Positions 17,342 through 34,745 of a stretch of 64,000 nucleotides of DNA are shown here, in pieces; positions within the stretch are counted from its first letter, which is position 1; each line of letters opens with the position of its first letter. The stretch spans positions 160,913 through 224,912 of the forward strand of contig JHYJ01000003.1 of NCBI GenBank assembly GCA_000621425.1, given 5' to 3'. The position numbers and the translations under genes are program-made. The notes under the pieces were generated by a model. The model had not been told where the DNA came from. It was given only the letters and a program-made list of their open reading frames with translations, and ran no database searches. The DNA comes from Lachnospiraceae bacterium AB2028. Lineage in GTDB: Bacteria > Bacillota > Clostridia > Lachnospirales > Lachnospiraceae.

Positions 17342-17356
17342 GGTAATCCTCCTCTA

Positions 17357-18085: not shown

Positions 18086-18172
18086 ATTAAATCCTCCTCA
18101 ATGTGATTTCGATAACCCAAATACAGTTTCATTGCTATCCGGCAGGGGACAAGCCCCCGCCTTGCATAACAT

Positions 18173-19531
18173 TTACACCTGGAAATCCTCCGGCCCCACC
18201 GAGTAGGGCTTGATCTTCTCGGCAAGGCAGGCCTTCTGGCCTCTGGTAAATACCCACTCATGATTCAGATCCAGTTCAAGTATTCGCTCCGGCAGTCTGC
18301 CTGCCTTGTCCGCAAAAAACTTCGCAGTCTCAACATCCTGTCCGCCCATATAGACCATAGTATCACAATTGTTGATTATGGTAGATGCCTGGCCTTTGTT
18401 GTACATGGCCTCAAGCTGCGACAGGGACTGCAGTATGACACTGGTACTGATATCACGGGAACGGATCACGGATATGATCTTGTCAAAATCCGGTATATAC
18501 ACATTTGCCGCAAAGTCATCCAATATTATGTGCACCGGTACCTTGAGCCGGCCATCTGCACGGTCATCAGCTCTCCTGCACAGTATCTGGTAAAGCTGTG
18601 TATAGAAGATATTCACGATGCTGTCCATGGAACGGTCGGTGTCACTAATATTCACAAAAAGTGCAGTCCTGCGTCTGCCAAGATCCATTATATCAACCTC
18701 GCTGTGACAAAGCATGTGATTGTTCTCTTCATAATCAAAAACATTCAGAGCATTGGCCACAAACTGTGCAATGGAACTCCAGCACTTTTCAGCCTTGAAA
18801 TTAAATGCATACATATGGTACTTTTTCACCGCAAAGCTGTCCGGATTCTCATCCTCCAGCGCCTTGAAGAATGACACCTCAGGCACCTCGTCCCGCTTTG
18901 TCTGTTCAATCTCCTTACACATCAGCCTGAAGAGCTTTGCCACAGAACCGAAGTTCTGCTCTTCCCCGGGAAGTACTTCCAGCACATACGAGATCAAACT
19001 GGCTATTACCACCCTGGCTGAATCAGTCCAGAAAGGCTCCTTTTCGTCAGCCTCGGGGACAATCAGCCTTGCTATGCTCATTACATCCTGCTGACGGTAG
19101 GTCTCGTACTCGTAATCCTCTACTTCCGGAGAAATCAGCTCTTCGCCGTCCTCATAGACACCGGGATTAATCACTTCCTTACCCCTTTTTTTGTACCGTT
19201 CTATGCCATCCAGCGGATTGTATCCCATGGAACGCTCAGGATGAACGAAGTCTATGAGCTGTGTCACATATCCGAGTTTTCTAAGGTCATCCGCATAATT
19301 ACGGTAGAGCTGTCCTTTGGTATCAGCCACTACTATGCTTCCGCGAGTGGAAAACATATTGGGCAGCACGTAAGATCCTGTCTTGCTGCAGCCGGATATA
19401 CCTATTACGAGGACATTGTTGTTAAGTCCCGTGGTACGGCTGTCCTCCGAGCGCATCATGTCCTTGGCGAAAACACGGAAGGACTTTGAACGGTCAAAAG
19501 CTACATTGGAATTATTTGTGTTTGTCATCAT
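18173..19531 (-). CDS. VirD4/TraG-like ATPase without membrane segments, altered Walker A
   Basis: This protein is related to the coupling proteins that feed DNA or protein into type IV secretion. In 452 residues the P-loop is GISGCSKT (44-51), followed by SYVLPN and VVADTKGQLYR; Walker B is HIILDDFA (about 330) then IPDFDKIISVIRSRDIS, and the TraM-recognition end has IINNCDTMVYMGGQD. Two things are odd. The two N-terminal membrane helices of true VirD4 are absent, and the glycine before the P-loop lysine is serine. No relaxase, VirB4 or pilus genes are in the window. So this is probably not a working conjugation pump but a soluble hexameric ATPase with partners encoded downstream. It follows a shared promoter-like element and a hairpin leader. 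Confidence 0.85.
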   Translation of the reverse strand: MMTNTNNSNVAFDRSKSFRVFAKDMMRSEDSRTTGLNNNVLVIGISGCSKTGSYVLPNMFSTRGSIVVADTKGQLYRNYADDLRKLGYVTQLIDFVHPERSMGYNPLDGIERYKKRGKEVINPGVYEDGEELISPEVEDYEYETYRQQDVMSIARLIVPEADEKEPFWTDSARVVIASLISYVLEVLPGEEQNFGSVAKLFRLMCKEIEQTKRDEVPEVSFFKALEDENPDSFAVKKYHMYAFNFKAEKCWSSIAQFVANALNVFDYEENNHMLCHSEVDIMDLGRRRTALFVNISDTDRSMDSIVNIFYTQLYQILCRRADDRADGRLKVPVHIILDDFAANVYIPDFDKIISVIRSRDISTSVILQSLSQLEAMYNKGQASTIINNCDTMVYMGGQDVETAKFFADKAGRLPERILELDLNHEWVFTRGQKACLAEKIKPYSVGPEDFQV

Positions 19532-19694
19532 AATTACTAATCTCCTTTATTTTTTGCTGTACACATATGTACATTTTCTGCTTCACCATGTCCGATTCCT
19601 AAGAAAATCCCCATGGTCGTTTTTACGCTAACCGGATCACTCTGCTGATCCGTCCGGCACTGTGTTCCCTGATCTCACATATTCAATTGTCTCC
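19532..19694 (-). promoter_or_regulatory. Hairpin-containing leader of the VirD4-like operon
   Basis: The 163 bases between the CCATAATAAGTG box and the ATPase start include GGGAACAC-GTGCC, then GGATCA-loop-TGATCC (19632-19656), then ACCATG...CATGGT. The first two blocks recur in the same order in the leader at 21718-21914. Conserved structure upstream of different proteins suggests a regulatory RNA leader. Confidence 0.5.
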
Positions 19695-19736
19695 CACTTA
19701 TTATGGGTAGGGCGGAAAACCGCCGAAAAATTTTCT
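19695..19736 (-). promoter_or_regulatory. Shared island element, copy A (before the VirD4-like operon)
   Basis: On the minus strand TTTTTCGGCGGTTTT is followed by nine bases and CCATAATAAGTG. The CCATAAT part can serve as a -10 box. It abuts the clpP stop. The same blocks at identical spacing occur at 20434, 21915 and 34404. Here the CCGCCGG left arm that makes a terminator in copies B and C is missing, so the conserved part is not merely a terminator. Confidence 0.6.
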
Positions 19737-20313
19737 ACCACTTCTCAATAATGCCTGTCGCTATGCCAAATTCGATGGATTCCTCTGCATCAAGGAAACA
19801 GTCCTCCTTAGTCTTCTCAAGAACTTCCTCAAGGGTGTGCCCGCTGCGTTCAGCAATTATGCCGCCAATGATGCCCCTTGTCTCCATAAGCTTTGCGGCT
19901 TCTTTTTCCAGCTCGAGAGCCTTCTTACTCCCTGAAAGCCCAGCTATAAGTGGATCATGAATCATACACTTTGTATGTGGAAGCATCAGGCGTTCCGCAC
20001 CCGCAAGGAAGATTATGGAACCCATACTTGCAGCCGTTCCTATGCATACAGTACGCACCGGGCTCTCCAGCATCTGAATGGTGTCATAGACTGCCAGACC
20101 ACTGACTACCTCTCCTCCGGGTGAATTAATGCACAGTGTGATCTCCTTCCCCGGCGCATCCTTGTCCAGAAAGAGCAGATACTCTATAAGCTCATTGGAG
20201 CTCTCCGGCGTCACCTCCTCTGTGAAAAAAAGCATCCTTGACCTAAGCAGTCCGCTCTCCGGACCGTATGCATCAATACCTCTTGCCGACTCGTGTAAAA
20301 TTAATCCCTTCAT
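19735..20313 (-). CDS. ClpP-family serine protease (island copy)
   Basis: This is a 192-residue proteolytic subunit that would form a barrel with an AAA+ unfoldase. The catalytic Ser is in GTAASMGS (about 97), His in CMIHDP (about 122) and the Asp in KTKEDCFLDAEE (about 172), so it looks active. The INSPGGEV motif is present. No clpX or clpA lies nearby, and it stands alone between two shared island elements, unlike housekeeping clpP. It may be a paralogue that partners one of the island ATPases, or resemble phage head-maturation ClpP; no phage genes are seen. RBS AGGAGGTAAAGCAA. Confidence 0.9.
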   Translation of the reverse strand: MKGLILHESARGIDAYGPESGLLRSRMLFFTEEVTPESSNELIEYLLFLDKDAPGKEITLCINSPGGEVVSGLAVYDTIQMLESPVRTVCIGTAASMGSIIFLAGAERLMLPHTKCMIHDPLIAGLSGSKKALELEKEAAKLMETRGIIGGIIAERSGHTLEEVLEKTKEDCFLDAEESIEFGIATGIIEKW

Positions 20314-20433
20314 TTGCTTTACCTCCTGATTAATTGGTTGTGCATCCTTACGGATGCAGATCTATGCTCCTTTGCCCTGTTCAATGCTGCTCCGCCATAT
20401 AATGTGGTGTTCATGGGGCCGGGCACTCCCCCT

Positions 20434-20479
20434 CACTTGTTATGGACGCACCAAAAAACCGCCGGAAAAAATCCGGCGG
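20434..20479 (-). promoter_or_regulatory. Shared island element, copy B (before clpP), with mazEF terminator
   Basis: The perfect stem CCGCCGGA/TCCGGCGG (20459-20479) with a T-run ends mazEF transcription on the minus strand. Its right arm forms the CGGCGGTTTT block, followed by nine bases and CCATAACAAGTG (20434-20445). Clp protease begins about 120 bases further on. The leader contains AAAGGAG at 20372 and a GCATCC/GGATGC hairpin near 20341-20360. Confidence 0.6.
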
Positions 20480-20545
20480 TTCCATACACTTAATTTATTA
20501 TTATGAAAAACTACCTAAAGATAAGCCTCCTCCTTTATGCGTTCA

Positions 20546-20857
20546 CTAATCATACTCAAATATTCCCTGAATAACATCGGATATGTTCATTACATCATCA
20601 TAGCTCAATCGGTCTACTCTGTTAATTCCACGGGCAATGGGATCTATAAGTTTCATCTGTTCACAGATAACTGTACCTCCGGTATGCTTTTTTCCTTTAA
20701 CCTTTATGTGTATAGGACCGGCAGCAACATCTGAAAGCACAGGACATACATGCAGAAATCCTGTCGCTTTTATAAAAGCATTTTTACTGGTAACAACAAA
20801 AAGTTTATTTCCGAATCCGCCTATCTTAACAATATCCCCCTGACATATATCATTCAC
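20546..20857 (-). CDS. mazF: MazF/PemK-type toxin
   Basis: This is a predicted mRNA-cleaving endoribonuclease of a type II toxin-antitoxin pair, 103 residues. It has the fold's opening GDIVKIGGFGNKLFVVTSKNAF, and a central TGFLHVCPVLSD in place of the usual RPVLVLSN/P stretch. QMKLIDPIARGINRVDRLS near 66-84 matches the conserved Q.k.iD...R region. Its ATG overlaps the antitoxin stop by 4 bases, so it is made by coupled translation. The CVLS-type segment is somewhat divergent, so activity is likely but not certain. Confidence 0.82.
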   Translation of the reverse strand: MNDICQGDIVKIGGFGNKLFVVTSKNAFIKATGFLHVCPVLSDVAAGPIHIKVKGKKHTGGTVICEQMKLIDPIARGINRVDRLSYDDVMNISDVIQGIFEYD

Positions 20858-21096
20858 AGCAACTCCCTCCCTTGCGGTTCACCCCACTCAAAATCACAGA
20901 CCGAGATTTCATTATGATACTCCGCCATACGCTCCTCAAAGGTCTTATGCCTGAAAGCCTTCCTTAGGATGATCGTACCATCAGACATTTCAATATCTAA
21001 GACATCTGAAACTTTAAGATCCATCTTATCCATTATGTCCTTACTGATTCTTATTCCCTGGCTATTGCCCCAGGCTCTGATTGCGACCTGATCCAT
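20854..21096 (-). CDS. mazE: MazE/AbrB-type antitoxin
   Basis: This is an 80-residue antitoxin with an N-terminal SpoVT/AbrB DNA-binding fold: VAIRAWGNSQGIRISKDIMDKM (residues 4-25), then DVLDIEMSDGTIILRK. The acidic C-terminus (about 50-80) should wrap the toxin. GGGAGG lies 5 bases before the ATG. The gene leads a two-gene operon with the toxin, and the promoter is embedded in a 34-bp palindrome that is a good site for autorepression by the MazE dimer. Confidence 0.9.
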   Translation of the reverse strand: MDQVAIRAWGNSQGIRISKDIMDKMDLKVSDVLDIEMSDGTIILRKAFRHKTFEERMAEYHNEISVCDFEWGEPQGRELL

Positions 21097-21114
21097 ATCA
21101 ACCTCCCAAAAAAT

Positions 21115-21164
21115 TATCCGGTATAATGTATATACATTATACCGGATACACCTATTTGATGCAA
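21115..21164 (-). promoter_or_regulatory. mazEF promoter with 34-bp perfect palindromic operator
   Basis: Bases 21115-21148 are a perfect palindrome with half-site TATCCGGTATAATGTAT. On the minus strand it contains TATAAT (21136-21141), with TTGCAT (21159-21164) exactly 17 bases upstream. Binding of an antitoxin dimer to the palindrome would block the -10 box. Confidence 0.85.
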
Positions 21165-21179
21165 TACTGCCTTACACAG

Positions 21180-21506
21180 TTATATCATAACTCCGGCTTT
21201 TACAAGTCCGATAATTCTGTCATTTGCAGCATACTTGCTTACTAAATCCGGATCCAGATTATTAATATGGTCTCTGTTTTTCCGGATCAGATCCTGCACA
21301 TTTGCATCATATACAACATAAGGCTTAGCTTCACCGTTATCATCTCTATAATATTTGTAGCCTACTCCGTTTATTTTTCCCTTTTTTGTAACCTCACGTA
21401 TTCCGTTTACGTATCCCATCTCTTTATCAAGAAAATACAAAACCTTATCTCTTGATATTCCAAACTTGCCTGCTATTTTTGTTAATGACATTGGATAATT
21501 ATTCAT
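21180..21506 (-). CDS. Small protein with N-terminal helix-turn-helix, 108 aa
   Basis: This is a hypothetical 108-residue protein. Residues 6-30 (MSLTKIAGKFGISRDKVLYFLDKE) look like a helix-turn-helix; the rest is basic to neutral with a GYKYYRDDNGEAKPYVVYD segment and a helical end. It may be a DNA-binding regulator. AAAGGAG precedes the ATG. It is the second gene of the unit headed by the 46-residue membrane protein, behind shared island element C. No named family recognised. Confidence 0.7.
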   Translation of the reverse strand: MNNYPMSLTKIAGKFGISRDKVLYFLDKEMGYVNGIREVTKKGKINGVGYKYYRDDNGEAKPYVVYDANVQDLIRKNRDHINNLDPDLVSKYAANDRIIGLVKAGVMI

Positions 21507-21576
21507 TTGAACTTACTCCTTTTCTTTATGCTTTTGTTGATTATTTTCTGTTGTTTTCATTGCTACGTTTTTCTTG

Positions 21577-21717
21577 TCATTCCGCATCTAAAAAATCTCT
21601 TACCTTTACGAAAATCCAGGCTGCAATTATCAGTAAAAACACACCAGTCTGGTACTTTTCAGGAAAAATGCTGCAAAATGCAATTATCAAGCCCATTTTG
21701 ATTATCCATCCGACCAT
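21577..21717 (-). CDS. Small hydrophobic membrane protein, 46 aa
   Basis: This 46-residue protein has two hydrophobic segments (WIIKMGLIIAFCSIF and VFLLIIAAWIFVKV) joined by a short polar turn, with the charged tail RDFLDAE. GGAGG lies 8 bases before the ATG in a clear ribosome site. It resembles the tiny membrane proteins that accompany integrative elements or phage holins, but no family can be named. It is the first gene behind island element C and its 197-base leader. Confidence 0.65.
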   Translation of the reverse strand: MVGWIIKMGLIIAFCSIFPEKYQTGVFLLIIAAWIFVKVRDFLDAE

Positions 21718-21914
21718 GTTCAAATCCTCCTTGTTTTTGCTAATAAACAGTTTGCCTTGGATACCGTGTCTACTTTCTCATGAGGCGCAGGCATTTGCCC
21801 TTGCGGTCCCCAGTTTCGCTTCACGATTGGTTTTGTGGCTAAACGGATCAGTCCACTGATCCGTTTAGCACGGTGTTCCCTGGCACTCACCTTATGAAGT
21901 TTTGTACCTCCTTA
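21718..21914 (-). promoter_or_regulatory. Hairpin-containing leader of the 46-aa membrane protein unit
   Basis: After the CCATAATAAGTG box come GGGAACACCGTGC, a perfect 14-bp stem with TGGA loop (21838-21869, GCTAAACGGATCAG arm), and a second hairpin around GGGCAAATGCC (about 21789-21806). The first two parts match the leader at 19532-19694. A GTG-started frame of about 56 codons crosses it, but its phase is not kept in the other copy, so I treat it as non-coding RNA. Confidence 0.5.
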
Positions 21915-21960
21915 CACTTATTATGGAGCCAATAAAAAACCGCCGGAATTTTTCCGACGG
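21915..21960 (-). promoter_or_regulatory. Shared island element, copy C, with vsr terminator
   Basis: The near-perfect stem CCGTCGGAAA/TTCCGGCGG (21940-21960) with six T ends vsr transcription on the minus strand; its right arm is the CGGCGGTTTT block. Nine bases later comes CCATAATAAGTG (21915-21926). Confidence 0.6.
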
Positions 21961-21989
21961 TTTTAAAACCAATGTTATATATTTTTTTC

Positions 21990-22454
21990 TTAGGATGTCG
22001 CTTCCGACATCATATTCTCAAATATTGTTTCCTCTATAACCCTTATACATACATCAGGATCCGCAAGTATTTCCTTTCCCCAGAAATGGATAACGGTCCA
22101 TCCCGCAAAACGGAGCATCTGGTCTTTTTCCGTATCACGCTCCATATTGCGCTCTATCTTCCGGATCCAGTAGCCAGCATTATTTCCCTTCTCGAGCCTC
22201 TTTTTCTGTTCTTCCCAATCTTTGCCATGAAAAAACTCCCCGTCGCAGAAAATGGCTATCCTGTATTTTGTAAGCGCGATATCGGGTGAGCCCGGAAGAG
22301 CACGGTAATTTTTCCTATATCTATAACCCTTTGCCCAGAGTGCCTTCCTCAATGCAAGCTCTATACTCGTATCCTTCCCACGGATACGGCTCATATTCTT
22401 ATGGCGCACCCCAGATACTTCGCCGAAGAGTTCAGATTTTTTCTGGTCTTTCAT
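21990..22454 (-). CDS. vsr: Very short patch repair endonuclease (Vsr)
   Basis: This is a mismatch endonuclease that nicks beside T:G mismatches arising from deaminated 5-methylcytosine. The 154 residues include the family signature NMSRIRGKDTSIELALRKALW, then KGYRYRKNY, LPGSPDIAL (catalytic Asp region) and AIFCDGEFFHG. The normal partner, a C5 cytosine methylase, is not in the window, so it is an orphan here. I start at MKDQKK; an upstream Met at 22508 would overlap the truncated frame described next. No good ribosome site is present, which suggests coupling to that upstream frame. Confidence 0.88.
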   Translation of the reverse strand: MKDQKKSELFGEVSGVRHKNMSRIRGKDTSIELALRKALWAKGYRYRKNYRALPGSPDIALTKYRIAIFCDGEFFHGKDWEEQKKRLEKGNNAGYWIRKIERNMERDTEKDQMLRFAGWTVIHFWGKEILADPDVCIRVIEETIFENMMSEATS

Positions 22455-22482
22455 CACACTGTTCAGTACTTTATCCTTTTTA

Positions 22483-22653
22483 CTATATACTTGGAAAAAT
22501 CCAAGCATCTGTATCTAACAGTTCATCCACAGATTCTCTCGGAGCTGAGTACAATTCCCCCGAATTCCAACTTGAGTCCTCTATACTTATTACTCCGCTG
22601 AGATCCCCTTCGTACAATAACAGATTTATCGTTTTTGCTTTTGCACTAGCCAT
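22483..22653 (-). pseudogene. Truncated GIY-YIG-type protein (N-terminal 56 aa)
   Basis: A 56-codon frame has a strong AAAAGGGGTGG site and starts MASAKAKTINLLLYEGDLSG. It continues with SIEDSSWNSGELYSAPRESVDELL, which is the leading segment I know from GIY-YIG nuclease family proteins. It then stops at the point where the GIY-YIG catalytic domain would begin. Codons just past the stop in another phase read GFFQVYSKKDKV, which faintly resembles the missing GVY...KVYVG strand. I infer a deletion or frameshift that removed the nuclease domain and joined the remnant to vsr. Confidence 0.55.
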
Positions 22654-22726
22654 CAAAACCACCCCTTTTATATGTCTTTGAGTAAAGCATAATTGATCAG
22701 ATAGCTATGATCAATCTGATTCTGGT

Positions 22727-22753
22727 CAAAAACCGTCGGAAACTTCCCGACGG
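22727..22753 (-). terminator. Terminator of the M41 peptidase gene
   Basis: On the minus strand CCGTCGGG-AAGTTT-CCGACGG is followed by five T, 44 bases after the peptidase stop. Confidence 0.8.
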
Positions 22754-22796
22754 TTTTTGCAAAAACACTATAAACTAGGATGAACAAATTGAGAAA

Positions 22797-24638
22797 TCAT
22801 ATTCCCAAATCCCTGCACCATTCTTCAAAAGTCTCGCCTGATATCTCCTTTTTATCAAGTGATAAAATGCGCTCAGCAAGCTTCTCCAGAGCAGGCTTGT
22901 ACTTGCTTAATAAAGCTTCTGTTTTCGATGCAACCTGCTCAACACATCTATCCGGCATTTCGTCCGCAGGCACCGGATCAAACGCGTGGTACTTACAAAT
23001 AATACTCTGCGTGTTTTCATCTAAGTAATAAATGCAATCGTCTTCCATCATAGCTCTCATTACCAAACCCTTTGCCTCAATATAATCCTGGCTCCATCCG
23101 GAATCCTCTCTACCCATGCATATCTTCTCAGCCGTTCGTCCACCAAGATAGATCATCATCCATTTTTCACACTCCATATTCAGGTCCCGACACTTATTTG
23201 AATAATCGCAGTGTCCCCCAGTACCGTTCTCTGGAATTATTGTAACCGTATCCCACAAACCATCTATATTTGAAACCAGCTTTCCAACCAAGGCATGTCC
23301 CATTTCATGGATGGCAGTTCTTCTAAGATCTCTTTCCTTTATTATTGTGTTGTCCCCGACCAGTTTACTAACCGTATCCAGAAAATCTTTCATTGTTTCT
23401 GCAGATACCCCTCCTTCAGTCCTACTCTCATTCAATTTGTCTATGCATGACAGAATGATTGCTTCCACATTTTCAGGATTCGTCTTATATCTGACAGGAT
23501 ATGAGAATTCATCAACGAAGCAGTTAAATAAATCTTCTGATTGTTTTGTGTTTAAATAAACAACATCTTTTGAATTATTAATTCCTTTACCCGGCATAAA
23601 ATCTAAAGAAAGATCAAATCCATTGTCTTTCAGAGCTCTTGATATCGACTCTCTTATAATCATTTTTATGGAATAACCAGGGTTTATGGATACAAAATTA
23701 TCGTTCTTTATCATTTCTTCCAAATAAGATTCTGATGTTGTTTTAAATCTAGCCTGTCCGTCATGATAAATGTATTTCCATGGAATTAAATTTTGCCCAA
23801 GCAACACCCCCTCATTATTTTTTAAATGAAATAAACTCAGGTTAGAATAGAACAAGCCTTTATATGATTCATCCTTATCCGTGGGAGGATTATAGGCATC
23901 ACTATAAATGTGTCCATTTGTGTCCCCTTTTAAGAGATAGATCACATCATTTCCGTAACCAATGGATATTACTTCAAAATCAGTTGCATAGGTAGACTTT
24001 GAACTCCATGGGGTAATTGTCCCCGCTTTTACATAATCATGCGCTTCATCACTCCATTCTACATCCTCATCGTAAAATTGCTCCTCGTAAATGATGTTTC
24101 CTTTCAAAAAATATACAAAAGGAATGGTATTATCCACGCATGTACGATTGGGAATCTTCGAATATCCGCCATCGCGATAAGGGAAAAACGCCGTGATTTT
24201 TTCACCACTAATATTTTTTTCAGAATCCTTCAACTCTGTCACGATACTCTCTGCATAAATATAGTCATGCTCCACAGGCTCAAGGTCAATAAGCTTATGC
24301 GTAATAAGACCATTAGACAGCACTGCACTACGCACTTTCATTCTTCGGATCATTCCGTCAACAATAGATACAGGATCTTTTTTTTCATCCTTCTTGCTGA
24401 TATAGAACGGATCGGCTACATCATCAAGGAAGCAAGCAAAAACATCCGCATCCTTTTCAAGGTAGCGCTCAAGTCTGTACTCTCCGTAATTTTCCATTAC
24501 AGCTTTAGTATTATCAATTATCATCTGATCAGGATTATCAATTCCGGAAACATCAATATCAATTTCATATCTGAAATCTCCAAACACCTCAATGGAATCT
24601 GCCGAACTTAACTTTGCATATCGTATAATTACTTTCAT
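22797..24638 (-). CDS. Free-standing M41 (FtsH-type) metallopeptidase with unknown N-terminal region
   Basis: The C-terminal third is a zinc peptidase of the FtsH (M41) type: HEMGHALV zinc motif at about residue 443, TIIPENGTGGHCDYS, YLGGRTAEKICMG, and the third ligand region SGWSQDYIEAKGLVMRAMM. Unlike FtsH there is no AAA+ ATPase domain and no membrane helix. The first 400 residues match no family I know; they are rich in Tyr/Asp strands. A true ftsH is present at 57.9-60.3 kb. The ATG at 24638 is chosen over a TTG two codons earlier because AAAGG is 9 bases away. It may process island proteins, or depend on one of the nearby ATPases. Confidence 0.85.
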   Translation of the reverse strand: MKVIIRYAKLSSADSIEVFGDFRYEIDIDVSGIDNPDQMIIDNTKAVMENYGEYRLERYLEKDADVFACFLDDVADPFYISKKDEKKDPVSIVDGMIRRMKVRSAVLSNGLITHKLIDLEPVEHDYIYAESIVTELKDSEKNISGEKITAFFPYRDGGYSKIPNRTCVDNTIPFVYFLKGNIIYEEQFYDEDVEWSDEAHDYVKAGTITPWSSKSTYATDFEVISIGYGNDVIYLLKGDTNGHIYSDAYNPPTDKDESYKGLFYSNLSLFHLKNNEGVLLGQNLIPWKYIYHDGQARFKTTSESYLEEMIKNDNFVSINPGYSIKMIIRESISRALKDNGFDLSLDFMPGKGINNSKDVVYLNTKQSEDLFNCFVDEFSYPVRYKTNPENVEAIILSCIDKLNESRTEGGVSAETMKDFLDTVSKLVGDNTIIKERDLRRTAIHEMGHALVGKLVSNIDGLWDTVTIIPENGTGGHCDYSNKCRDLNMECEKWMMIYLGGRTAEKICMGREDSGWSQDYIEAKGLVMRAMMEDDCIYYLDENTQSIICKYHAFDPVPADEMPDRCVEQVASKTEALLSKYKPALEKLAERILSLDKKEISGETFEEWCRDLGI

Positions 24639-24770
24639 TTTCAATAACCTTTCTGAATTTGATTTTGTTACAAGACGTCATAATAATTTTACTATAACCT
24701 TTTTTGTCAAGTACTAGTCAAAACAACAATCCACATAGTAATCCCCCTTCCCATACATTTTGATCATTTT

Positions 24771-27203: not shown

Positions 27204-27234
27204 TTTTTTCTTCTCCTATGACATTCAACTCTAT

Positions 27235-30150
27235 TCATTTTTTCCCGCACAGATGCTTTAAATAGCACTCCTTGCATTTCTCGCCCTTCCTTCTGGGCAG
27301 ATTGTCGCTGCGAATATTATGGGCCGCTTCCATGATGCCGTCACGTGCTGAAATAAGTGCATTGCTTTGCACCTCTTCCTTTGCATTCCTTGAACCGTCG
27401 GGGTGGTCCAGATTGTAGATCATCAGATAGTCTGCATCCCGGCCTGTTGCCTCCTGGTAACCGATGGCATAAATCTTTAACTGCTCTGCATTCAGGCACT
27501 GTTCTGCATCCTTCCCCGCAGACTTAAGGTCGACAATGGCAAGCTTTTCACTGCCGTCCACCTGAACAGTGCGGACCAGATCTATACGGCCATTGACACT
27601 TACGCCCTCACCCATCTCAATATTGATATCCATTTCCGACGCAACCATACGGTCCTTGTCTTTTTCATTCTGCCTTATATAGGCCTTCGCACAGTTCATT
27701 GCACCGGTCTTCGCATTTTCTATCTGCACCGGATTTGCAAAGGGCAGATAAACAGCAGTTTCAACTATCTGCTTCAAGTTGTCCTCTGTTATTTCTTCAT
27801 GATCTATCCAGGTACGATGTATGTGCATCATAATCTCATGCAGCACGGTTCCGTATCCCTGCACTTCCGAATAGGGCTGCACAAAACCGTAGAAATTAGA
27901 AAGCTTAAAGCGATAAGGGCAATCATAATAATTGGAAAGCAGTGAAAAGTTGAGCGTAAGCGGAAGTGGATCCTGTTTCATAAACGGTAATGCCTTATCC
28001 GAATACCTGAAATCCGGATTATCCCCTAGATGCTTATAATACTTTAGATAAGGTGATTCCAGGACTTCGTTTAAAAACTCTGACCTGCATTCATCCTTTT
28101 CACCATATTTATCAGCATAGCTTAGGAAGAGATATTTTTTTGCCCTTGTGACAGCTACATAGAAAAGCTTGCGTTCTGCGTCTACTCCCCCATAATACCC
28201 GTCAAAATTAGGCACCCACGTATGTACATCCGCATTTGCTGAACCTGCCATACTTCTTAATGCATCAGCTGCACTGTATACCCTGCCTGGCATACAAAAA
28301 CTTCCGGAAGGGAATATTCCCTCGCAAAGTGCAGGAATGAATACAGCCGTAAATTCCATGCCCTTTGACTGATGAACCGTCATAAGACGCACTGCGTCAC
28401 CGCGTATCATGGCATTGTCCTGCTCGCCCTCAGGATACATGTCTGTTACCATCAGCATCAGATGCTCGCAGAACCGGCTCGCTTTGTACTGGGCTGATTC
28501 ATTAAAGTACAACAGTTCAAAATCAGCTATCACACGGCTGCATTTGCCGAAATTGTACATTGCAGTCCGCGCCCGGTTATCATCCCGCTCCAGAAAATCA
28601 AAATGCGCCAGAAACTCCTGAAATATCTGCTGCATATTAAATTCATGACCGAAGACCTTTTCCTTTGAACAGATTTTTTTCATCTTCTTATCCAGGTCTT
28701 TAATAGCAGACTCATAGCATGACTCGTCATTACACACTTTTAGCCAGGTGTCCTTTATCTGCTGTGCCTGGAAACCAATGACCATACTGGAATACTTTGA
28801 AAGATAATTTGCCGTAATATAAAAGAAGAGATGCTCCATCGCAGCAAACTCATCCGTAGTATGAAGGGTATTCAGGCCCTCCACGATATATTCAATATTA
28901 TTCTCCTTCAGCTTTGCGGACAGGACATTCTGGAAATCGGCCATTATTACACCATAGTCATATTCCCTGCGCTTTCTGAAAAGCACCGCTATCTCAGAAA
29001 GGGGAATGCCGCCGGCATTCAGACGTTTTATCTCCCTTACCATATGGTCGGCTTCACTATCGTAACCTGAGAAATCCTTCCATACTATGTCACCTTCTTC
29101 ATATGCCAGGCTGCTGCCCTTTATATCCCCATGGACCATAGGAATATGTTCCTGTCCATCTGTGTAATTTCCTTCTATAGAATGATTAGCAACATCAATC
29201 ACCGCATCAGTACTACGGAAATCCTTATCCAGACGGATCTGTACAGCATCATACTTCTCCTTGAAACCAAGGATATTGCTCTCATCACTTCCCCTGAACT
29301 GATATATGGTCTGATCCGCATCACCTACCACACACAAATTGGCGTTGCCATATTTCTTAAAAAGCCCTGTGAGATACTCCTGTGACGGATTAGTATCCTG
29401 GTATTCATCTATGATAAGGTACTTAACCCTGTCAAAAACTTTTTGGCCAAACTCTGATATCTGTCCACCATTTGTATCCGACTCCGGATCAAGGCCTTCG
29501 ATCATCTTTCTGATCATAGATGAAAAATCAAAATACTTATTGTCGTACAGGCATTTATTGTATTTAGCAAGACAATCCAGAACCTCAGGACTCCAATTGT
29601 CCCTATAGGAATGATCATGCCATGTACCGTTCAGCATGGACATAAGGCTCGAATAATAGTCAAATTTCCTTGGATTCTTTGACCCGTTACGGTTAAGATT
29701 GACCGCTCTGTCGATTACAGATCCCCTGAGTCCCGTCATATCCTCCCTGCCGTCGCTGTATCTTTCAAGAAAAATCTTGGTCTGCACTTCATCAAGGACT
29801 GAAAACTTGGCATACTCAGGCTCATACTCCTGCAGCATCTTAAGGCAGAAAGCATCTATCGTGCCTATATACATATCCGCAAATCCCTTCGTATTACCAA
29901 GGATGCGGCCGCCCACATCATAAATACGTCCACGCATTTCTGCGGCTGCCTTCCTTGTGAAAGTGATCGCCACGATATTCTCCGGTTTCACTCCGTTTGC
30001 GATCATGTATATGATACGGTGGGTAACAGTCTTGGTCTTACCCGCACCAGCACAGGCTACTATCTCCAGGTCATGTGTTATCTCCTGTACCGCCTGCTTC
30101 TGCGGCTCAGTCATTCCGTCAAGAAGCTTGTCTCTGATTTTCTTGTTCAT
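27235..30150 (-). CDS. UvrD-family helicase-nuclease with C-terminal RecB/Cas4-like Fe-S nuclease domain
   Basis: This is a 971-residue fusion of an SF1A helicase and a PD-(D/E)xK exonuclease, as in AddA/AdnA-type enzymes that resect or degrade DNA ends. Helicase motifs: IVACAGAGKTKTVTHRI, LIIDEYQDTNPSQEYL, VGDADQTIYQFRGSDE, LMTVHQSKGMEFTAVF, FYVAVTRAKKYLFLSY. The nuclease (about 740-971) has the first cluster cysteine in YYDCPYRFKL, GTVLHEIMMH, VNGRIDLVRT, IVDLKSAG (catalytic Asp and Lys) and closing cysteines CKECYLKHLC, so an Fe-S cluster is expected. The RBS is weak (GCAGAAAGAG) behind a shared leader motif. Confidence 0.92.
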   Translation of the reverse strand: MNKKIRDKLLDGMTEPQKQAVQEITHDLEIVACAGAGKTKTVTHRIIYMIANGVKPENIVAITFTRKAAAEMRGRIYDVGGRILGNTKGFADMYIGTIDAFCLKMLQEYEPEYAKFSVLDEVQTKIFLERYSDGREDMTGLRGSVIDRAVNLNRNGSKNPRKFDYYSSLMSMLNGTWHDHSYRDNWSPEVLDCLAKYNKCLYDNKYFDFSSMIRKMIEGLDPESDTNGGQISEFGQKVFDRVKYLIIDEYQDTNPSQEYLTGLFKKYGNANLCVVGDADQTIYQFRGSDESNILGFKEKYDAVQIRLDKDFRSTDAVIDVANHSIEGNYTDGQEHIPMVHGDIKGSSLAYEEGDIVWKDFSGYDSEADHMVREIKRLNAGGIPLSEIAVLFRKRREYDYGVIMADFQNVLSAKLKENNIEYIVEGLNTLHTTDEFAAMEHLFFYITANYLSKYSSMVIGFQAQQIKDTWLKVCNDESCYESAIKDLDKKMKKICSKEKVFGHEFNMQQIFQEFLAHFDFLERDDNRARTAMYNFGKCSRVIADFELLYFNESAQYKASRFCEHLMLMVTDMYPEGEQDNAMIRGDAVRLMTVHQSKGMEFTAVFIPALCEGIFPSGSFCMPGRVYSAADALRSMAGSANADVHTWVPNFDGYYGGVDAERKLFYVAVTRAKKYLFLSYADKYGEKDECRSEFLNEVLESPYLKYYKHLGDNPDFRYSDKALPFMKQDPLPLTLNFSLLSNYYDCPYRFKLSNFYGFVQPYSEVQGYGTVLHEIMMHIHRTWIDHEEITEDNLKQIVETAVYLPFANPVQIENAKTGAMNCAKAYIRQNEKDKDRMVASEMDINIEMGEGVSVNGRIDLVRTVQVDGSEKLAIVDLKSAGKDAEQCLNAEQLKIYAIGYQEATGRDADYLMIYNLDHPDGSRNAKEEVQSNALISARDGIMEAAHNIRSDNLPRRKGEKCKECYLKHLCGKK

Positions 30151-30188
30151 ATATTCTCTTTCTGCCTTTTAGCGGCAATTAAATGTTT

Positions 30189-30467
30189 CTACATCCACTT
30201 TTCAAACTTCGCAGGATCTTTGTCGCCAGTGTAGTACCACTTCTTCTTATCAGGATCCCACCTTGCCCCCAAAGCCTTAGCCTCATCTTTTTCGTCAAAG
30301 GGACAGTTGATGTAATGTTTCTCATTCTTTAATCTGTTTAGCTCTGCCTGTTTAGCCGCCCTATTTTCCCTGTCCTCGTACTCAAGTGCATCCCAGACTG
30401 CATCATCATATGCATCCTGCAGATCTTCACCATCGGCTCCAAGAATTTCTTCCCAATCGATTCCCAT
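30189..30467 (-). CDS. DUF5710-domain protein
   Basis: This is a 92-residue protein whose C-terminal half (about 46-92: YINCPFDEKDEAKALGARWDP, then KKWYYTGDKDPAKFEKW) is the DUF5710 module. That module is found as an add-on in primases, helicases and mobile-element proteins and is thought to bind nucleic acid. The N-terminal half is acidic and helical. It lies between the VWA gene and the helicase-nuclease and probably works with DNA-handling proteins. AAGGAGG precedes the ATG. Confidence 0.8.
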   Translation of the reverse strand: MGIDWEEILGADGEDLQDAYDDAVWDALEYEDRENRAAKQAELNRLKNEKHYINCPFDEKDEAKALGARWDPDKKKWYYTGDKDPAKFEKWM

Positions 30468-30536
30468 TGTAATGTCCTCCTTTTGTTTTCTATCGTATCA
30501 CATTTTTTTAACTAATTTTACTTTTTTATGTAACTG

Positions 30537-31712
30537 CTATTGCAGTTTTGCGATCTTCCCGTACCTCCGCATATCCCTTCCACAGTCTTCGCTAAGTACC
30601 ATTATCGTGCTATTCCGCAGGCTTCCCGGAATCATCGGCATATCATCAAAATACCCGTCCGTAAGTATCAGCATCAGATATGGCCGTATTCTGTTTTCTT
30701 CAATATACTTGTATACGCACGCAACATCCGTGCCGCCGCCCCAGTATGTCTTGCATTTCAGCAGGTCTTCTTTTTTCTGTATGTCCTTATAAACATCGCC
30801 TATGCTTGAATCCCAGTATGCCAGGTTCAGTGAACAGGTGTAGGAACTTAGGATCTGCTTAAGCTGCGTCAGGAATTCCATAACTGTTTCCTGCGATATG
30901 GAGCCGGATGTATCTATAAAGGTCCATATCTCGCCGAGATCGTTTTCATCCGGATCAGCCCCCGGTACTATCATACCCATATGCAGGTATTTGCGCTCCG
31001 GCTTTAAGTATGAAGAATCGTCAGCTTCATTTTCCTGCAGGTATTCCCTAAGAAGGCTATCCCAGGGCAGGTATTTGGGCTTTGTTGTGAAGTACATCTC
31101 GGAAATGATTTCCGGCGGCTTTCCGCCGAAGACCATCGCTTTCTTTATTGAATCCTTGAACATACGCCGCAGTTCTTCTTCCTCCTCCGGTGAAAGCTCC
31201 GCATAGTCTCCCATCAGGTCAGACGGCACCAGTCTCCCTATTTCAGATTTTTCTATCACTCTCCTGACGCTTTCGATCATTTTCTTCACGCCCTCATCCT
31301 CCGAATTGTACAACTCATCATAATACACCTCGGCACTTTTTTCTTCCCAGCCTAAATTATAATGGGGATAAATCACTCCATCCGGACCATAATAGCCGCT
31401 CTTCCTCAGTGTCAGATTTATCACATAATCTGTTGCGATATTCCATATTACACGGTCCCTTCCTTTCCTTCTGGAGAAATGCAGCAGAAGGATATGCAGC
31501 AGCTCGTGCAGAAGGATGAATTTTATCTCGCTTCCCTTGAGCTGCCCCATATATTCAGGCGAGTAGATTATCCTGCGCCCGTCTGTTGCCGCCGTATCAA
31601 TTCTTTCATCCTCCACCAATGGGATGTGGGAAAGTATAGTCCCATAAAAGGGCTGCTCCAGTAATATATTTGCCCTGACATCTTCAATTCTGTCTTTTAT
31701 ATCCTGATTCAT
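30537..31712 (-). CDS. VWA-like protein with N-terminal metallopeptidase domain (DUF2201 type)
   Basis: This is a 391-residue partner of MoxR-type ATPases. The N-terminal part has a putative zinc peptidase motif, LLHELLHILLLHF (HELLH, about residue 69). The C-terminal half (about 255-391) is a von Willebrand A-like domain with a metal-ion adhesion motif, FIDTSGSIS (DxSxS), and a distal LILTDGYFDD. The combination is typical of the DUF2201 family, which pairs with AAA MoxR proteins. It lies 13 bases after an unknown gene and two genes after the MoxR gene. It may be a substrate adaptor or a peptidase released by the ATPase. Confidence 0.88.
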   Translation of the reverse strand: MNQDIKDRIEDVRANILLEQPFYGTILSHIPLVEDERIDTAATDGRRIIYSPEYMGQLKGSEIKFILLHELLHILLLHFSRRKGRDRVIWNIATDYVINLTLRKSGYYGPDGVIYPHYNLGWEEKSAEVYYDELYNSEDEGVKKMIESVRRVIEKSEIGRLVPSDLMGDYAELSPEEEEELRRMFKDSIKKAMVFGGKPPEIISEMYFTTKPKYLPWDSLLREYLQENEADDSSYLKPERKYLHMGMIVPGADPDENDLGEIWTFIDTSGSISQETVMEFLTQLKQILSSYTCSLNLAYWDSSIGDVYKDIQKKEDLLKCKTYWGGGTDVACVYKYIEENRIRPYLMLILTDGYFDDMPMIPGSLRNSTIMVLSEDCGRDMRRYGKIAKLQ

Positions 31713-31725
31713 AATTCCTCCTGTC

Positions 31726-33042
31726 CTAATTAAGTATATTTATCAGCCTGAATCTTCTCATGTAATACTGCTTAACATTATAATAGTTTACAGCATCATC
31801 GTCTTCATTGAGACAGCCATTCTCATCAGCTATCATAAAAGCATGACTTTCGCCTGACGGAGAAAATGCATTAAAGGCCCTGAATATCGTATACTCCCTT
31901 CCTTTGTAATGTACATCCGCAATATCAGCGTCATAATGCAGGCAAATACCTATTAATATCTGCAGCACCGGTCCATCTTCGCGGTCGTAAAAGACACAGT
32001 ATAGATCACGTATAACCCCCCTCCTGATAACCTGTCTTTCCTTATCACTCATATTATCGACCAGAAGACTTCCAATCCTGTCAATATCTTCAAAGGGTTC
32101 CGATACATTCGCCCCCAAAAGTGACACTGCTCTGCTGGCATCTCCGGTAATAAACGATAAATACGGGCCATGACTTAAATCATTATAAGCATTCCCGAAT
32201 TTCAGCCGGTAGTCAATGTCAAAGCTGTCCTGACTGGTCTTTTTCCTGTAAAGGTTAACCTGCGGAAAATAATAGCCCCAGTTAATGTCGTAAGACCCCA
32301 TAAAACTACTTGACAGAAGACACCCGCCATCAGCTGTTTTATACCCTGTAACCGGCCTGTACCTGTCAGCCTGATCCGGCGATAGTCTGAAAAATATCTT
32401 CGTAGTGCTCAGTATATCCTGAGGAATCTCTACTTTTGTTACACCCTGTGTCAATTCAAGCACAGACGTATGGATGAGTTCCGGCTGTGCAGCCACCGTC
32501 TTGATGCCAGGATCTATCACAACTTTCTCCAGCTGTTTTTCTCCTATCCTAAGGCTCCCCTGCCCAAGTCGTTCAATATACCTCTGAGCAAGGTACGCAG
32601 GAACTTTGGCTATGCCGTTGATATCCTTTACTTCTATATAAAGGATAGTATTCCCCGCAACGATGTAATCGTCCGTCCAAAACCAGTTGTTTATCATTCT
32701 TGCATCGTAGCGTGCATCTGCAGGCTTTGCATGATTGCCGGCCTTTTTACCGTAAAGCCATAGCACATCTACCATCTTTTCAGCCATCTTGTTCAGGGTA
32801 CCCGCGTTCTTAAAACATTTCTCTCTCCTGAACTTAGAGTAATGTGCAAGCTCATCCATTATTTCAGGGTAAAAACCTGTGAGGGTACTCATGGTATCGT
32901 AGGTAAGATCCGTGTTATATCCCTGCAACTCGGAAAACTCAAATAGGCTGAGCAGTTCCATAAGTGCCAGATGATTGCTCTCTGATTTCTCCAGTGAATA
33001 TATCTTCCTGATAAAATTCACATAGTTTGTACTGAAGTCCAT
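31726..33042 (-). CDS. Hypothetical protein between MoxR and VWA genes
   Basis: This is a 438-residue protein of unknown family, soluble. I start at MDFSTNY because GGCAGAAAGGAGG lies just before it; upstream in-frame Mets lack a site. It has a long helical N-terminus (about 1-110), a middle section with strands (NTILYIEVKDINGIAKVPAYL) and a C-terminal domain (VIRDLYCVFYDREDGPVLQI). In MoxR systems a third protein is often the client or effector; by position this is the candidate. Nothing in it shows a catalytic site I can name. Confidence 0.78.
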   Translation of the reverse strand: MDFSTNYVNFIRKIYSLEKSESNHLALMELLSLFEFSELQGYNTDLTYDTMSTLTGFYPEIMDELAHYSKFRREKCFKNAGTLNKMAEKMVDVLWLYGKKAGNHAKPADARYDARMINNWFWTDDYIVAGNTILYIEVKDINGIAKVPAYLAQRYIERLGQGSLRIGEKQLEKVVIDPGIKTVAAQPELIHTSVLELTQGVTKVEIPQDILSTTKIFFRLSPDQADRYRPVTGYKTADGGCLLSSSFMGSYDINWGYYFPQVNLYRKKTSQDSFDIDYRLKFGNAYNDLSHGPYLSFITGDASRAVSLLGANVSEPFEDIDRIGSLLVDNMSDKERQVIRRGVIRDLYCVFYDREDGPVLQILIGICLHYDADIADVHYKGREYTIFRAFNAFSPSGESHAFMIADENGCLNEDDDAVNYYNVKQYYMRRFRLINILN

Positions 33043-33105
33043 AGTACCTCCTTTCTGCCACGCTTTTTGCGGCACCTTCGAAAGAATCCCTGCCGTGGCC
33101 GCCTG

Positions 33106-34185
33106 TTATGCACAGGCAACCACTTTATCCATCCGGTCCAGATACTTCTCCATTTCCGGATCATCCATTTCAAATATAATGGACTTGATGATGTTAGGAT
33201 TAACCTTCAACAGCCGCTTCATAGCGTAGGTAACAAACTCAGTACGCTTAAGCCTTAGGATGCAGTCGACGATGTCGTGAAGTATTTCACGGTCTCTTTC
33301 AGAAAGCTTCTGTGAGGCGGAAGATCTGCACACAATTGCCGCCTTTGAAGTCAGATGATCGATTATCATTTCGATTTCCGCCGGATCAATTGGTGCCGGA
33401 ATACTGCCTTCAATAAACTTATCGATCATTATTCCGTAATCCTTCTCACAGAACTGGAAGAATTTATGTGCCTCAACATCACCGATATTGCCGATGATCT
33501 TGAACCTGACAGCCGGACTGCTTATGTCATCCGCGCAGTTCAGGATTTCGCTTACCCTGGTCCAGGATCGCGGCGTGGCAAATACCATTTCATCGGTGCC
33601 GCTCTTCTGGGTATGGAGTGACTCGGGATAGCAGTTTAAGTACCTCACTACATATCCATTTATACCATTCGGTATGGCGTAGTCCTCTTTCCAGACCCTG
33701 TAATCCACATCGATATTATGGATTTCAAAACGGTCCGCCAAAGGTGCCGCAAGCTTTACATACACACCGTCATCCGTTTCGCGATTTCCAAGAGCAATCA
33801 CGATAGTGCCTTCCGGCAGCTTGTACTGTCCCACCCGCCTGTCAAGGACAAGCTGATAGGCTGCCACCTGCACGCGCTTCGGACAAGATGTGATCTCATC
33901 CAGCAACAGGATAGTCTTTTTGCCATCCCTTTCCTCATCCGGCAGGATCTCAGGTGCCAGCCATCTGGTCTTGGTGTGATCCTCATTCGGATAGATGAGT
34001 CCGCCGATCTCCACCTCAGACATCTGGGCGAGACGCAGGTCTATCACCTTGTAGCCGTATTTCTCGCCGATCTGCTGTATCATCTCGGACTTTCCGAGAC
34101 CCGGTGCTCCCAGGCCAAGCACTGCATGCCTTATGCCATGCTCTATGTTGAACTCAATGCAATTTCTAAAATCTCTAAGTGTCAT
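33106..34185 (-). CDS. MoxR-type AAA+ ATPase
   Basis: This is a 359-residue AAA+ ATPase of the MoxR branch, which remodels or activates partner VWA proteins. Walker A is LGAPGLGKSEMIQQIG (about 24-39), Walker B KTILLLDEITSCPKRVQ (about 91-107), sensor 1 VIALGNRETDDGV, and the arginine region follows. Position is first in the MoxR-unknown-VWA operon, behind shared island element D. The ribosome site GGCAGAAAGGTGG is part of the recurrent GGCAGAAAGG leader motif. The C-terminal lid (about 240-359) is helical. Confidence 0.92.
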   Translation of the reverse strand: MTLRDFRNCIEFNIEHGIRHAVLGLGAPGLGKSEMIQQIGEKYGYKVIDLRLAQMSEVEIGGLIYPNEDHTKTRWLAPEILPDEERDGKKTILLLDEITSCPKRVQVAAYQLVLDRRVGQYKLPEGTIVIALGNRETDDGVYVKLAAPLADRFEIHNIDVDYRVWKEDYAIPNGINGYVVRYLNCYPESLHTQKSGTDEMVFATPRSWTRVSEILNCADDISSPAVRFKIIGNIGDVEAHKFFQFCEKDYGIMIDKFIEGSIPAPIDPAEIEMIIDHLTSKAAIVCRSSASQKLSERDREILHDIVDCILRLKRTEFVTYAMKRLLKVNPNIIKSIIFEMDDPEMEKYLDRMDKVVACA

Positions 34186-34700
34186 AGTTCCACCTTTCTG
34201 CCGCCTTTTCGCAGCTTAAATATTCGTAACTGAATACCAATCTTTTCTTTCGGTTACCAGAGCGGATGCAAGGGCACTTTTCGGGAGCCGCTCGCCGCTT
34301 GTAGCGGGTCGTGGCGCTGTTTCCCCGGATGGGGGCCTCCCGTGTATTTCCATCATGTAGTTGTCAAGGTGCGATCGAAGCACGTTCTGCGAAATCAGTC
34401 CCACACTTATTATGGGGCCGGCCAAAAACCGCCGAAAAATTTCCGGCATTTTCTGTTTTTTTACGCATAAAACGACATTTTCGTGCAAAACTAAAGGCTG
34501 CAAAAACAACGAACAGCGACAAAAATGCACAAAAATAACATCTCCGTATTCAGTTTCTTCTTTTGGAATTTTATTTGATTATCGGTGCTTTCAGACTTCA
34601 CCGATTGATCTCTGAGAGAGATCCCTCTTATCGAGTGGTTTCATTGTAACACATAAAGACTATATGTCAATAGGGAAATTTCAAATTTTGATTGGTTGTG
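34186..34700 (-). other. 515-base region without a credible gene; leader of the MoxR operon
   Basis: It contains island element D (34404-34447), then towards the MoxR gene a G+C-rich stretch (34255-34345), much richer than its surroundings. An in-frame stretch there reads MEIHGRPPSGETAPRPATSG, which may be a relic of another coding sequence. The stretch 34450-34700 is A+T rich with no gene I can support. A 104-codon frame covers part of this, but it crosses element D and has no ribosome site. Confidence 0.5.
34404..34447 (-). promoter_or_regulatory. Shared island element, copy D (before the MoxR/VWA operon)
   Basis: On the minus strand GCCGGAAATTTTTCGGCGG is followed by TTTTT, then CCATAATAAGTG (34404-34415) at the same nine-base spacing from CGGCGGTTTT as in copies A-C. 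The MoxR ATG is 219 bases downstream. The preceding gene already has a strong terminator of its own at 34701, so this copy is not needed for termination. Confidence 0.6.
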
Positions 34701-34732
34701 AAAAAAACATCCCCACCGAAATGGTGGGGATG
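34701..34732 (-). terminator. Terminator of the Rpn-type nuclease gene
   Basis: A perfect 10-bp stem CATCCCCACC/GGTGGGGATG with a five-base loop is followed by seven T on the minus strand, 14 bases after the stop. Confidence 0.92.
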
Positions 34733-34745
34733 ATGAATGTGTATG

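What the first reader, a model, noticed from the sequence alone, without database searches (positions are those of the whole stretch)
19695..34447. Four island operons share one composite promoter-like element
Four minus-strand sites (19695-19736, 20434-20479, 21915-21960, 34404-34447) carry CGGCGGTTTT, then exactly nine variable bases, then CCATAAYAAGTG. Each lies 120-220 bases upstream of a transcription unit: the VirD4-like operon, clpP, the 46-aa membrane protein unit and the MoxR/VWA operon. In copy A the left arm of the terminator hairpin is missing but the blocks remain, so conservation is not explained by termination. A dedicated regulon linking these unrelated genes is likely.
Basis: partly seen in the sequence, partly recalled or inferred. 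Interest (0 to 1): 0.8.

Follow-up and report, generated by a model that had tools for sequence, protein, structure and literature searches.

The report
Shared start signal of island operons
In a bacterium of the family Lachnospiraceae, a stretch of mobile-looking genes carries the same short DNA signal, probably a combined stop-and-start switch for transcription, in front of several of its gene groups, which suggests that the stretch may control its genes together.

Summary
CGGCGGTTTT-N9-CCATAAYAAGTG occurs exactly four times, all on the minus strand, with 0 expected by chance. The 3.48-Mb genome holds one further place with 3 mismatches, inside an open frame. Homologous islands in three other genomes of the genus bring the copies found to 19. 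The relaxed form is GGCRGYTTT-N10-CAYRAY; 18 of 19 keep the 10-base gap. AAGTG is not universal (15 of 19). The same core heads different units: MoxR, clpP, p46, p108, p313, p393 and two of six virD4 genes. In 15 of 19 copies the left block is the 3' arm of a good hairpin; CATAAT resembles a -10 box.

Best reading: an island-specific terminator-promoter junction that starts long leaders; the p46 leader is a strongly structured RNA without Rfam match. A dedicated regulator is possible but unproven. The island encodes a sigma-like 340-aa protein (not found in two of the four box-bearing genomes) and a 108-aa HTH-like protein (found in three of four). The "regulon" is supported as confinement to one island, not as a shown circuit. 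No transcript data were available.

The parts
19700..19740 (-). Copy A (virD4 unit): degraded left arm overlapping the clpP stop codon, right arm plus T-run, N10, CATAAT at 19700-19705
20439..20479 (-). Copy B (clpP unit): 7-bp hairpin, T-run, N10, CATAAC at 20439-20444
21920..21960 (-). Copy C (p46/p108/MazEF-like unit): 7-bp hairpin (one wobble pair), T-run, N10, CATAAT at 21920-21925
34409..34449 (-). Copy D (MoxR unit): weaker hairpin (6 of 7 pairs, wobble included), T-run, N10, CATAAT at 34409-34414
21763..21912 (-). Structured leader RNA (model R2) between box C and the p46 start codon; 46 predicted pairs; no Rfam match
19585..19698 (-). Diverged relative of the R2 leader between box A and virD4 (E 2.7e-7; not used to build the model)
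34275..34351 (-). Conserved leader domain (model R1) between box D and MoxR; 5 copies in three genomes, 2 of 21 predicted pairs with double changes
18173..19531 (-). VirD4-like protein, NCBIfam NF045973 (CD1115 family), unit headed by box A
19735..20313 (-). ClpP-like protease, headed by box B
21577..21717 (-). 46-aa small protein (p46), first gene after box C
21180..21506 (-). p108, helix-turn-helix-like small protein (non-significant MerR/RacA-like fold matches); candidate regulator in the box C unit
33106..34185 (-). MoxR-like AAA ATPase, first gene after box D; followed by p449 and a DUF2201/VWA protein
13910..14932 (+). 340-aa protein with weak sigma-factor similarity (TIGR02479, residues 97-160); candidate island sigma-like factor

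Best explanation
The element is an island-specific junction between transcription units. A short hairpin with a T-run ends the upstream unit. Its 3' arm plus T-run (GGCGGTTTT) lies at a fixed distance (10 bases) from a -10-like CATAAT, from which the next unit starts. The transcript then begins with a leader of about 120-220 nt before the first gene; one class of leader (p46/p108, distantly virD4) is a compact structured RNA. Because the -10-like box reads C instead of T at its first base in all 19 copies and no good -35 hexamer exists, the promoter probably depends on an extra factor that reads GGCGGTTTT, most simply one encoded in the island. Shown: the repeats, their spacing, their confinement in what was searched, and the pairing of most hairpins. 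Inferred: transcription start, termination and any factor.
For: 19 copies found, each oriented towards the unit it precedes; 18 with exactly 10 bases between the blocks. On the 8 island loci the gap-10 pattern gives 17 exact matches (18 with one mismatch), gap 9 gives 1 exact, and the other 20 gaps from 3 to 24 give no exact match. Means worked out by hand from the column table: 1.86 bits over GGCGGTTTT and 1.82 over CATAAT, against 0.69 in the spacer, 0.56 upstream and 0.47 downstream. Right hairpin arm 1.71 bits, left arm 1.04 (underestimated, as two rows are shifted by one base), as expected if the right arm is also read as DNA; copy A keeps it without a good left arm. In the six p46/p108 copies the shared leader sequence (AGGAGGT...) begins 6-10 nt after CATAAT, about where a transcript from a -10 box would start. 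CCGGCGGTTTTT occurs at 4 places in 3.48 Mb, 2 of them boxes, so it is not the genome's usual terminator.
Against: No transcript ends are available. CATAAT with TTYCGG at 17 bases is a poor sigma-A promoter; none of the four boxes is listed by the promoter scan, which finds 48 sites against 42.3 (sd 5.9) in shuffles. Copy B reads CATAAC. Copy D lies about 300 bases after a gene that already has a strong terminator-like site, and a much better promoter-like site (TTGACA-N16-TACAAT, 34670-34643) lies upstream of it. Four of six virD4 genes lack the box. The 19 rows are orthologues and paralogues of seven unit types, not independent.
Confidence: 0.6

Rival explanations
1. Dedicated regulon in the strict sense: an island-encoded factor (the sigma-like 340-aa protein or p108) recognises the box and switches the units together.
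For: Confinement to the island; first base of the -10-like box is C in 19 of 19; sigma-like similarity of 13910-14932 in NCBIfam (E 7.6e-4) and weakly in PHROGs (E 0.2) at overlapping residues; p108 strongly present in 3 of the 4 box-bearing genomes and strongly in none of the other 31 (the E 7.7e-4 hit in G002 lies in an unrelated-looking ORF).
Against: The sigma-like protein was found in own and G005 only, not in G031 or G016. p108 was not found in G016. p108 is linked to the box, so co-occurrence is expected anyway. The fold matches of p108 are not significant (best E 0.13). The sigma-like model has mean pLDDT 49.5.
Confidence: 0.3
2. The box is a leftover of duplication and module shuffling: units were copied and recombined at short homologous junctions, so the junction is alike by descent, not by selection.
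For: Units and leaders are duplicated and re-ordered between islands; the p46 leader and gene stand before MoxR in G005 and before p108/mazEF in the window; the box is missing before one virD4 orthologue of G031 whose leader is otherwise similar.
Against: The spacer and both flanks vary while the two blocks and their gap do not; in 2 of 19 copies a hairpin pair is changed on both sides (CCGCC..GGCGG against CTGCC..GGCAG).
Confidence: 0.2
3. RNA-level attenuator: transcripts come from further upstream, and the hairpin plus the following RNA decide on read-through into the next unit.
For: A strong promoter-like site upstream of copy D; in some copies the 3' end of the spacer could pair with GGCGG (seen by eye only); the p46 leader is strongly structured.
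Against: A rigid 10-base gap is not needed for an RNA switch; no conserved alternative pairing was established; the MoxR, clpP and virD4 leaders of the window as wholes are not clearly more stable than shuffled sequence (z +0.44, +0.64, -1.14).
Confidence: 0.12
4. Ordinary terminator followed by an ordinary housekeeping promoter, alike by chance or by general base usage.
For: Terminator-promoter neighbours are common in compact genomes (recalled).
Against: 0 expected matches; CCGGCGGTTTTT is rare in the genome; the only further own-genome place with the strict pattern (3 mismatches) lies in a 711-codon open frame.
Confidence: 0.03

Closest known systems
Start-Associated Sequences (SAS/ESAS) of cluster K mycobacteriophages (PMC3203893, passages seen)
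   Same: Short oriented repeat before many genes of different families in one mobile element, absent or rare in the host genomes named there, about half with inverted repeats; function unknown in that paper
   Different: SAS sits at the ribosome binding site, typically 3-7 bp before the start codon; here the box is about 120-220 bases upstream and looks like a promoter
KorA/KorB operator regulon of IncP-1 plasmid RK2 (PMC4889941, PMC11790492: starts of abstracts in a search listing only; details recalled)
   Same: One mobile element, shared regulatory sites across several operons, element-encoded regulators
   Different: There the regulators are known; here no regulator is shown, and the site is an asymmetric two-block element
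T4 middle promoters, MotA box plus -10 (PMC6755090, PMC2988021: starts of abstracts in a search listing only; box position recalled)
   Same: Poor -35, conserved block upstream of a -10-like box at fixed distance, element-encoded activator
   Different: Different sequence and host group; no MotA- or AsiA-like protein was looked for or identified; only an analogy

Membership tests
Sigma-70/sigma-A promoter | -10 hexamer close to TATAAT | tested here: met
   CATAAT (5 of 6) in 15 of 19 copies; CATAAC, CATGAT and twice CACAAT in the others
Sigma-70/sigma-A promoter | -35 hexamer close to TTGACA at 16-18 bases | tested here: not met
   TTYCGG-like at 17 bases, 2 of 6 (read); none of the four boxes passes the scan
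Sigma-70/sigma-A promoter | Transcript starts 5-9 bases after the -10 box | not testable with these tools
   No transcript data; the shared leader sequence begins 6-10 bases after CATAAT in the six p46/p108 copies
Intrinsic terminator | G+C-rich hairpin followed by a T-run | tested here: inconclusive
   6-7 of 7 pairs in 15 of 19 copies; 5, 3, 2 and 1 in the others (two of these are shifted by one base). Of the four window copies the terminator scan lists only copy D
Mobile-element regulon (Kor-like) | Shared site confined to the element | tested here: met
   Strict pattern in own genome, 35 genus and 397 family genomes; the relaxed form was not run on all of these
Mobile-element regulon (Kor-like) | Element-encoded regulator that binds the site | not testable with these tools
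   Candidates only: 340-aa sigma-like protein and p108
Known Rfam leader or riboswitch | Match above the family's gathering score | tested here: not met
   Whole window: only a tRNA; 17000-35000 and the p46 and MoxR leaders alone at loose E-values: all far below gathering scores
Sigma factor (for 13910-14932) | Sigma-factor profile match above the curated cut-off | tested here: not met
   TIGR02479 E 7.6e-4, 19.3 bits against a cut-off of 189.6; Pfam none; so sigma-like at most
MerR-type regulator (for p108) | MerR-type winged HTH fold | tested here: inconclusive
   Many of the top PDB hits are MerR-family, RacA or CarH proteins, but the best E is 0.13; no Pfam match for the window copy

The most novel reading that the evidence does not exclude
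A genus-restricted genomic island runs its own transcription programme: one new promoter class (GGCGGTTTT-N10-CATAAT fused to a terminator), read with the help of an island-encoded sigma-like or MerR-like factor, launches a set of leader RNAs, including a new structured RNA family, in front of interchangeable gene modules (MoxR/VWA, ClpP-VirD4, toxin-antitoxin).
Probability: 0.25. Interest if true: 0.6.

Novelty: new member of a known kind. Interest (0 to 1): 0.4.

Why it matters
If true, the box ties together genes with no recognised joint function (MoxR/VWA, ClpP, VirD4-like ATPase, a MazEF-like pair) as one programme, which would help to learn what the island does. It also gives a compact test bed for how a mobile element builds its own promoter class, and offers two leader RNA types without an Rfam match.

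Tried and rejected
Tried and left: (1) Rfam for the leaders: no match. (2) Island proteins in viral contigs: none for MoxR, VirD4 or p108. (3) Shortened box patterns as exact matches: CGGTTTT-N9-CCATAAYAAGTG in viral contigs (2 hits) and CGGTTTT-N10-CATAAYAAGTG in genome contigs (10 hits). Three of the latter are the two known islands (L031, L035, L036); the other seven and the two viral hits show no box context by eye. (4) Structure of the sigma-like protein: mean pLDDT 49.5, not used further. (5) Structure of p108: mean pLDDT 62.9, only non-significant matches. (6) Leaders of ClpP-VirD4 pairs outside the box islands: no box by eye in the 11 loci printed. (7) A hairpin within CCATAAYAAGTG itself: stems and loops differ between copies, judged by eye only. 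(8) Literature: the motif letters occur in 42 papers, and none of the 10 titles listed concerns such an element; a search needing three of five terms on terminator/promoter overlap, intergenic repeat, identical promoter, ICE and Lachnospiraceae gave 0 papers. Nothing wider is claimed about novelty in print.

Limits: the relaxed box pattern was run on the 8 island loci held (147,690 bases) and, with slightly different letters, on the own genome, not on all 35 genomes, so diverged copies elsewhere may exist. On the own genome GGCGGYTTT-N10-CATAAT with up to 2 mismatches gives 30 places against 15 for the reversed control. Of the 8 places with at most one mismatch, 4 are the boxes; of the other 4, three lie in open frames of at least 208 codons and one was not resolved; the 22 places with two mismatches were not inspected. 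One place with a 9-base gap and one mismatch was not examined. The RNA model search of the genus scored the 88 best candidates of each genome. G031 is 85% complete and the G016 island contig is 4.7 kb, so absences there are weak.

Full report
Observation. The pattern CGGCGGTTTT-N9-CCATAAYAAGTG is present four times without mismatch, all on the minus strand; no match appears in 100 shuffles. In the own genome (3,476,318 bases) up to 3 mismatches add one place on another contig, which lies inside a 711-codon open frame. CATAAYAAGTG alone occurs 10 times against 6 for the reversed control, and CCGGCGGTTTTT occurs 4 times, two of them boxes. The combination, not the parts, is what is special.

Distribution. 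In 35 genomes of the genus (own included) the strict pattern with up to 3 mismatches hits 4: own (5 places), G005 (3), G031 (2) and G021 (1). The G021 place shows no hairpin or leader by eye. In 397 genomes of the family 14 have a match: own, and 13 others with one 3-mismatch hit each, while the reversed control gives 15 hits in 14 genomes, so these look like chance. Contexts of five of the 13 were printed (L016, L017, L022, L025, L026) and show no box context by eye; the other eight were not read. A shortened pattern in genome contigs found the G005 and G031 islands again (Lachnospiraceae bacterium UBA4364, DGSK01000022.1, and an uncultured Lachnospiraceae bacterium, CAMOJK010000003.1) and seven unrelated-looking places. 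These records are the basis for naming the family of the window.

A wider set of copies. A relaxed pattern on the eight island loci held (147,690 bases) gives 17 exact and 18 one-mismatch-or-better matches with a 10-base gap between GGC[AG]G[CT]TTT and CA[CT][AG]A[CT], and one exact match with a 9-base gap. The other 20 gaps from 3 to 24 give no exact match and at most 3 with one mismatch. That makes 19 copies: own 4, G005 7, G031 7, G016 1. By unit: MoxR 3, p46 4, clpP 6, virD4 2, p108 2, p313 1, p393 1. All six clpP genes seen in these islands have a box; only two of six virD4 genes do. AAGTG follows CATAAT directly in 9 of 19, after one extra base in 6, and is absent in 4. So the core is GGCGGTTTT-N10-CATAAT, not the full pattern of the finding.

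Anatomy. Column information (block means worked out by hand from its table): GGCGGTTTT 1.86 bits, CATAAT 1.82, spacer 0.69, upstream 0.56, downstream 0.47. The left block of the finding is the 3' arm and T-run of a hairpin with an A/T-rich loop. 15 of 19 copies form 6 or 7 of 7 pairs; the others are the two virD4 copies (5 and 1) and two copies shifted by one base (2 and 3). Two copies change one pair on both sides (CTGCC..GGCAG). The right arm is more conserved (1.71 bits) than the left (1.04, underestimated because of the shifted rows). Copy A overlaps the clpP stop codon with its left arm and keeps the right arm exactly; the G005 virD4 copy, however, has a changed right arm, so the argument from copy A rests on one site. 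The first base of the -10-like box is C in 19 of 19. No acceptable -35 is seen, and none of the four boxes is listed by the promoter scan, which itself finds about what shuffles give (48 against 42.3, sd 5.9). The 19 rows are related to each other, so these figures describe and do not test.

Leaders. Behind the box of the p46 unit and of the G005 p108 unit lies a 150-nt structured RNA: 46 predicted pairs, none broken in the 4 sequences used, 1 pair changed on both sides. The 188-nt p46 leader of the window is more stable than all of 200 shuffles (z -3.83). Two leaders not used for the model match it: the G031 p108 leader (E 3.4e-15) and the virD4 leader of the window (E 2.7e-7). Among 35 genomes the model finds six places in the three islands and one weak place (E 0.6) elsewhere in G031. 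A second conserved domain lies behind the MoxR box and before p313: 5 copies, 21 predicted pairs, 2 with changes on both sides, 2 not kept in every copy; one copy (G005, before the first MoxR) has no box directly upstream, since p46 lies between. Against a general statement about structure: the whole MoxR, clpP and virD4 leaders of the window are not clearly more stable than shuffles (z +0.44, +0.64, -1.14). Rfam has no match. The leaders differ between units while the box does not, so the box seems to have a role of its own.

Who might read it. The island encodes a 340-aa protein with weak similarity to FliA/WhiG sigma factors over residues 97-160 (E 7.6e-4, 19.3 bits, far below the family's cut-off of 189.6), echoed by a late-sigma match with E 0.2. 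It was found in own and G005 only, 2 of 35, hence not in two box-bearing genomes. p108, encoded in the box C unit, has non-significant fold matches, many of them MerR-family, RacA or CarH proteins (best E 0.13). It is strongly present in own, G005 and G031 (two copies) and strongly in no other of 35 genomes; the weak hit in G002 lies in an unrelated-looking ORF. Since p108 is itself an island gene, this co-occurrence is no independent proof.

Genes. The VirD4-like protein passes the cut-off of NCBIfam NF045973 (CD1115 family). In 11 loci chosen from the high-scoring VirD4 matches (9 loci from 8 genomes of other genera, 2 from the own genome) a ClpP gene lies directly before the VirD4-like gene; the regions upstream show no box by eye. 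The middle protein of the MoxR unit is found in 4 of 35 genomes of the genus and only in the own genome among 397 of the family. The island thus looks restricted to a few species of one genus in what was searched, while the ClpP-VirD4 pair is wider.

Conclusion. The regulon claim is supported in the weak sense (one element, confined to one island, before several of its units) and untested in the strong sense (one factor, joint control). I commit to a terminator-promoter junction with probability 0.6, and to a dedicated island factor with about 0.3; the two overlap.

Noticed in passing
window 18173-20313; L094-L104: ClpP-like protease gene directly before a small VirD4-like ATPase gene in 11 of 11 chosen loci (9 from other genera of the family, 2 further pairs in the own genome), without the box by eye; the pair looks like an older functional unit.
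   Followed up: partly
window 21763-21912 (minus): Compact 150-nt structured leader RNA with no Rfam match, found strongly in three of 35 genomes of the genus.
   Followed up: partly
window 34275-34351 (minus); L014:11223-11300; L012:12292-12375: Second conserved leader domain (GGGAGGCCCCCATCCGGGG...) before MoxR and before an unrelated 313-aa gene, once without a box directly upstream.
   Followed up: partly
window 13910-14932 (+): 340-aa protein with weak sigma-factor similarity at the island edge, next to a parB-like gene.
   Followed up: partly
window 34643-34670 (minus): Strong promoter-like sequence TTGACA-N16-TACAAT about 230 bases upstream of the CATAAT of box D, with an unexplained stretch between.
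   Followed up: no
window 20546-21096 (minus): MazE-like and MazF-like toxin-antitoxin pair with a TATAAT inside an inverted repeat (21115-21148) just upstream.
   Followed up: no
L095:8000-8240; L013:9190-9340; L046:4410-4560: Leaders of some other ClpP/VirD4 genes share an AGCCCGAAGYRYTTG motif (seen by eye), different from the box leaders.
   Followed up: no
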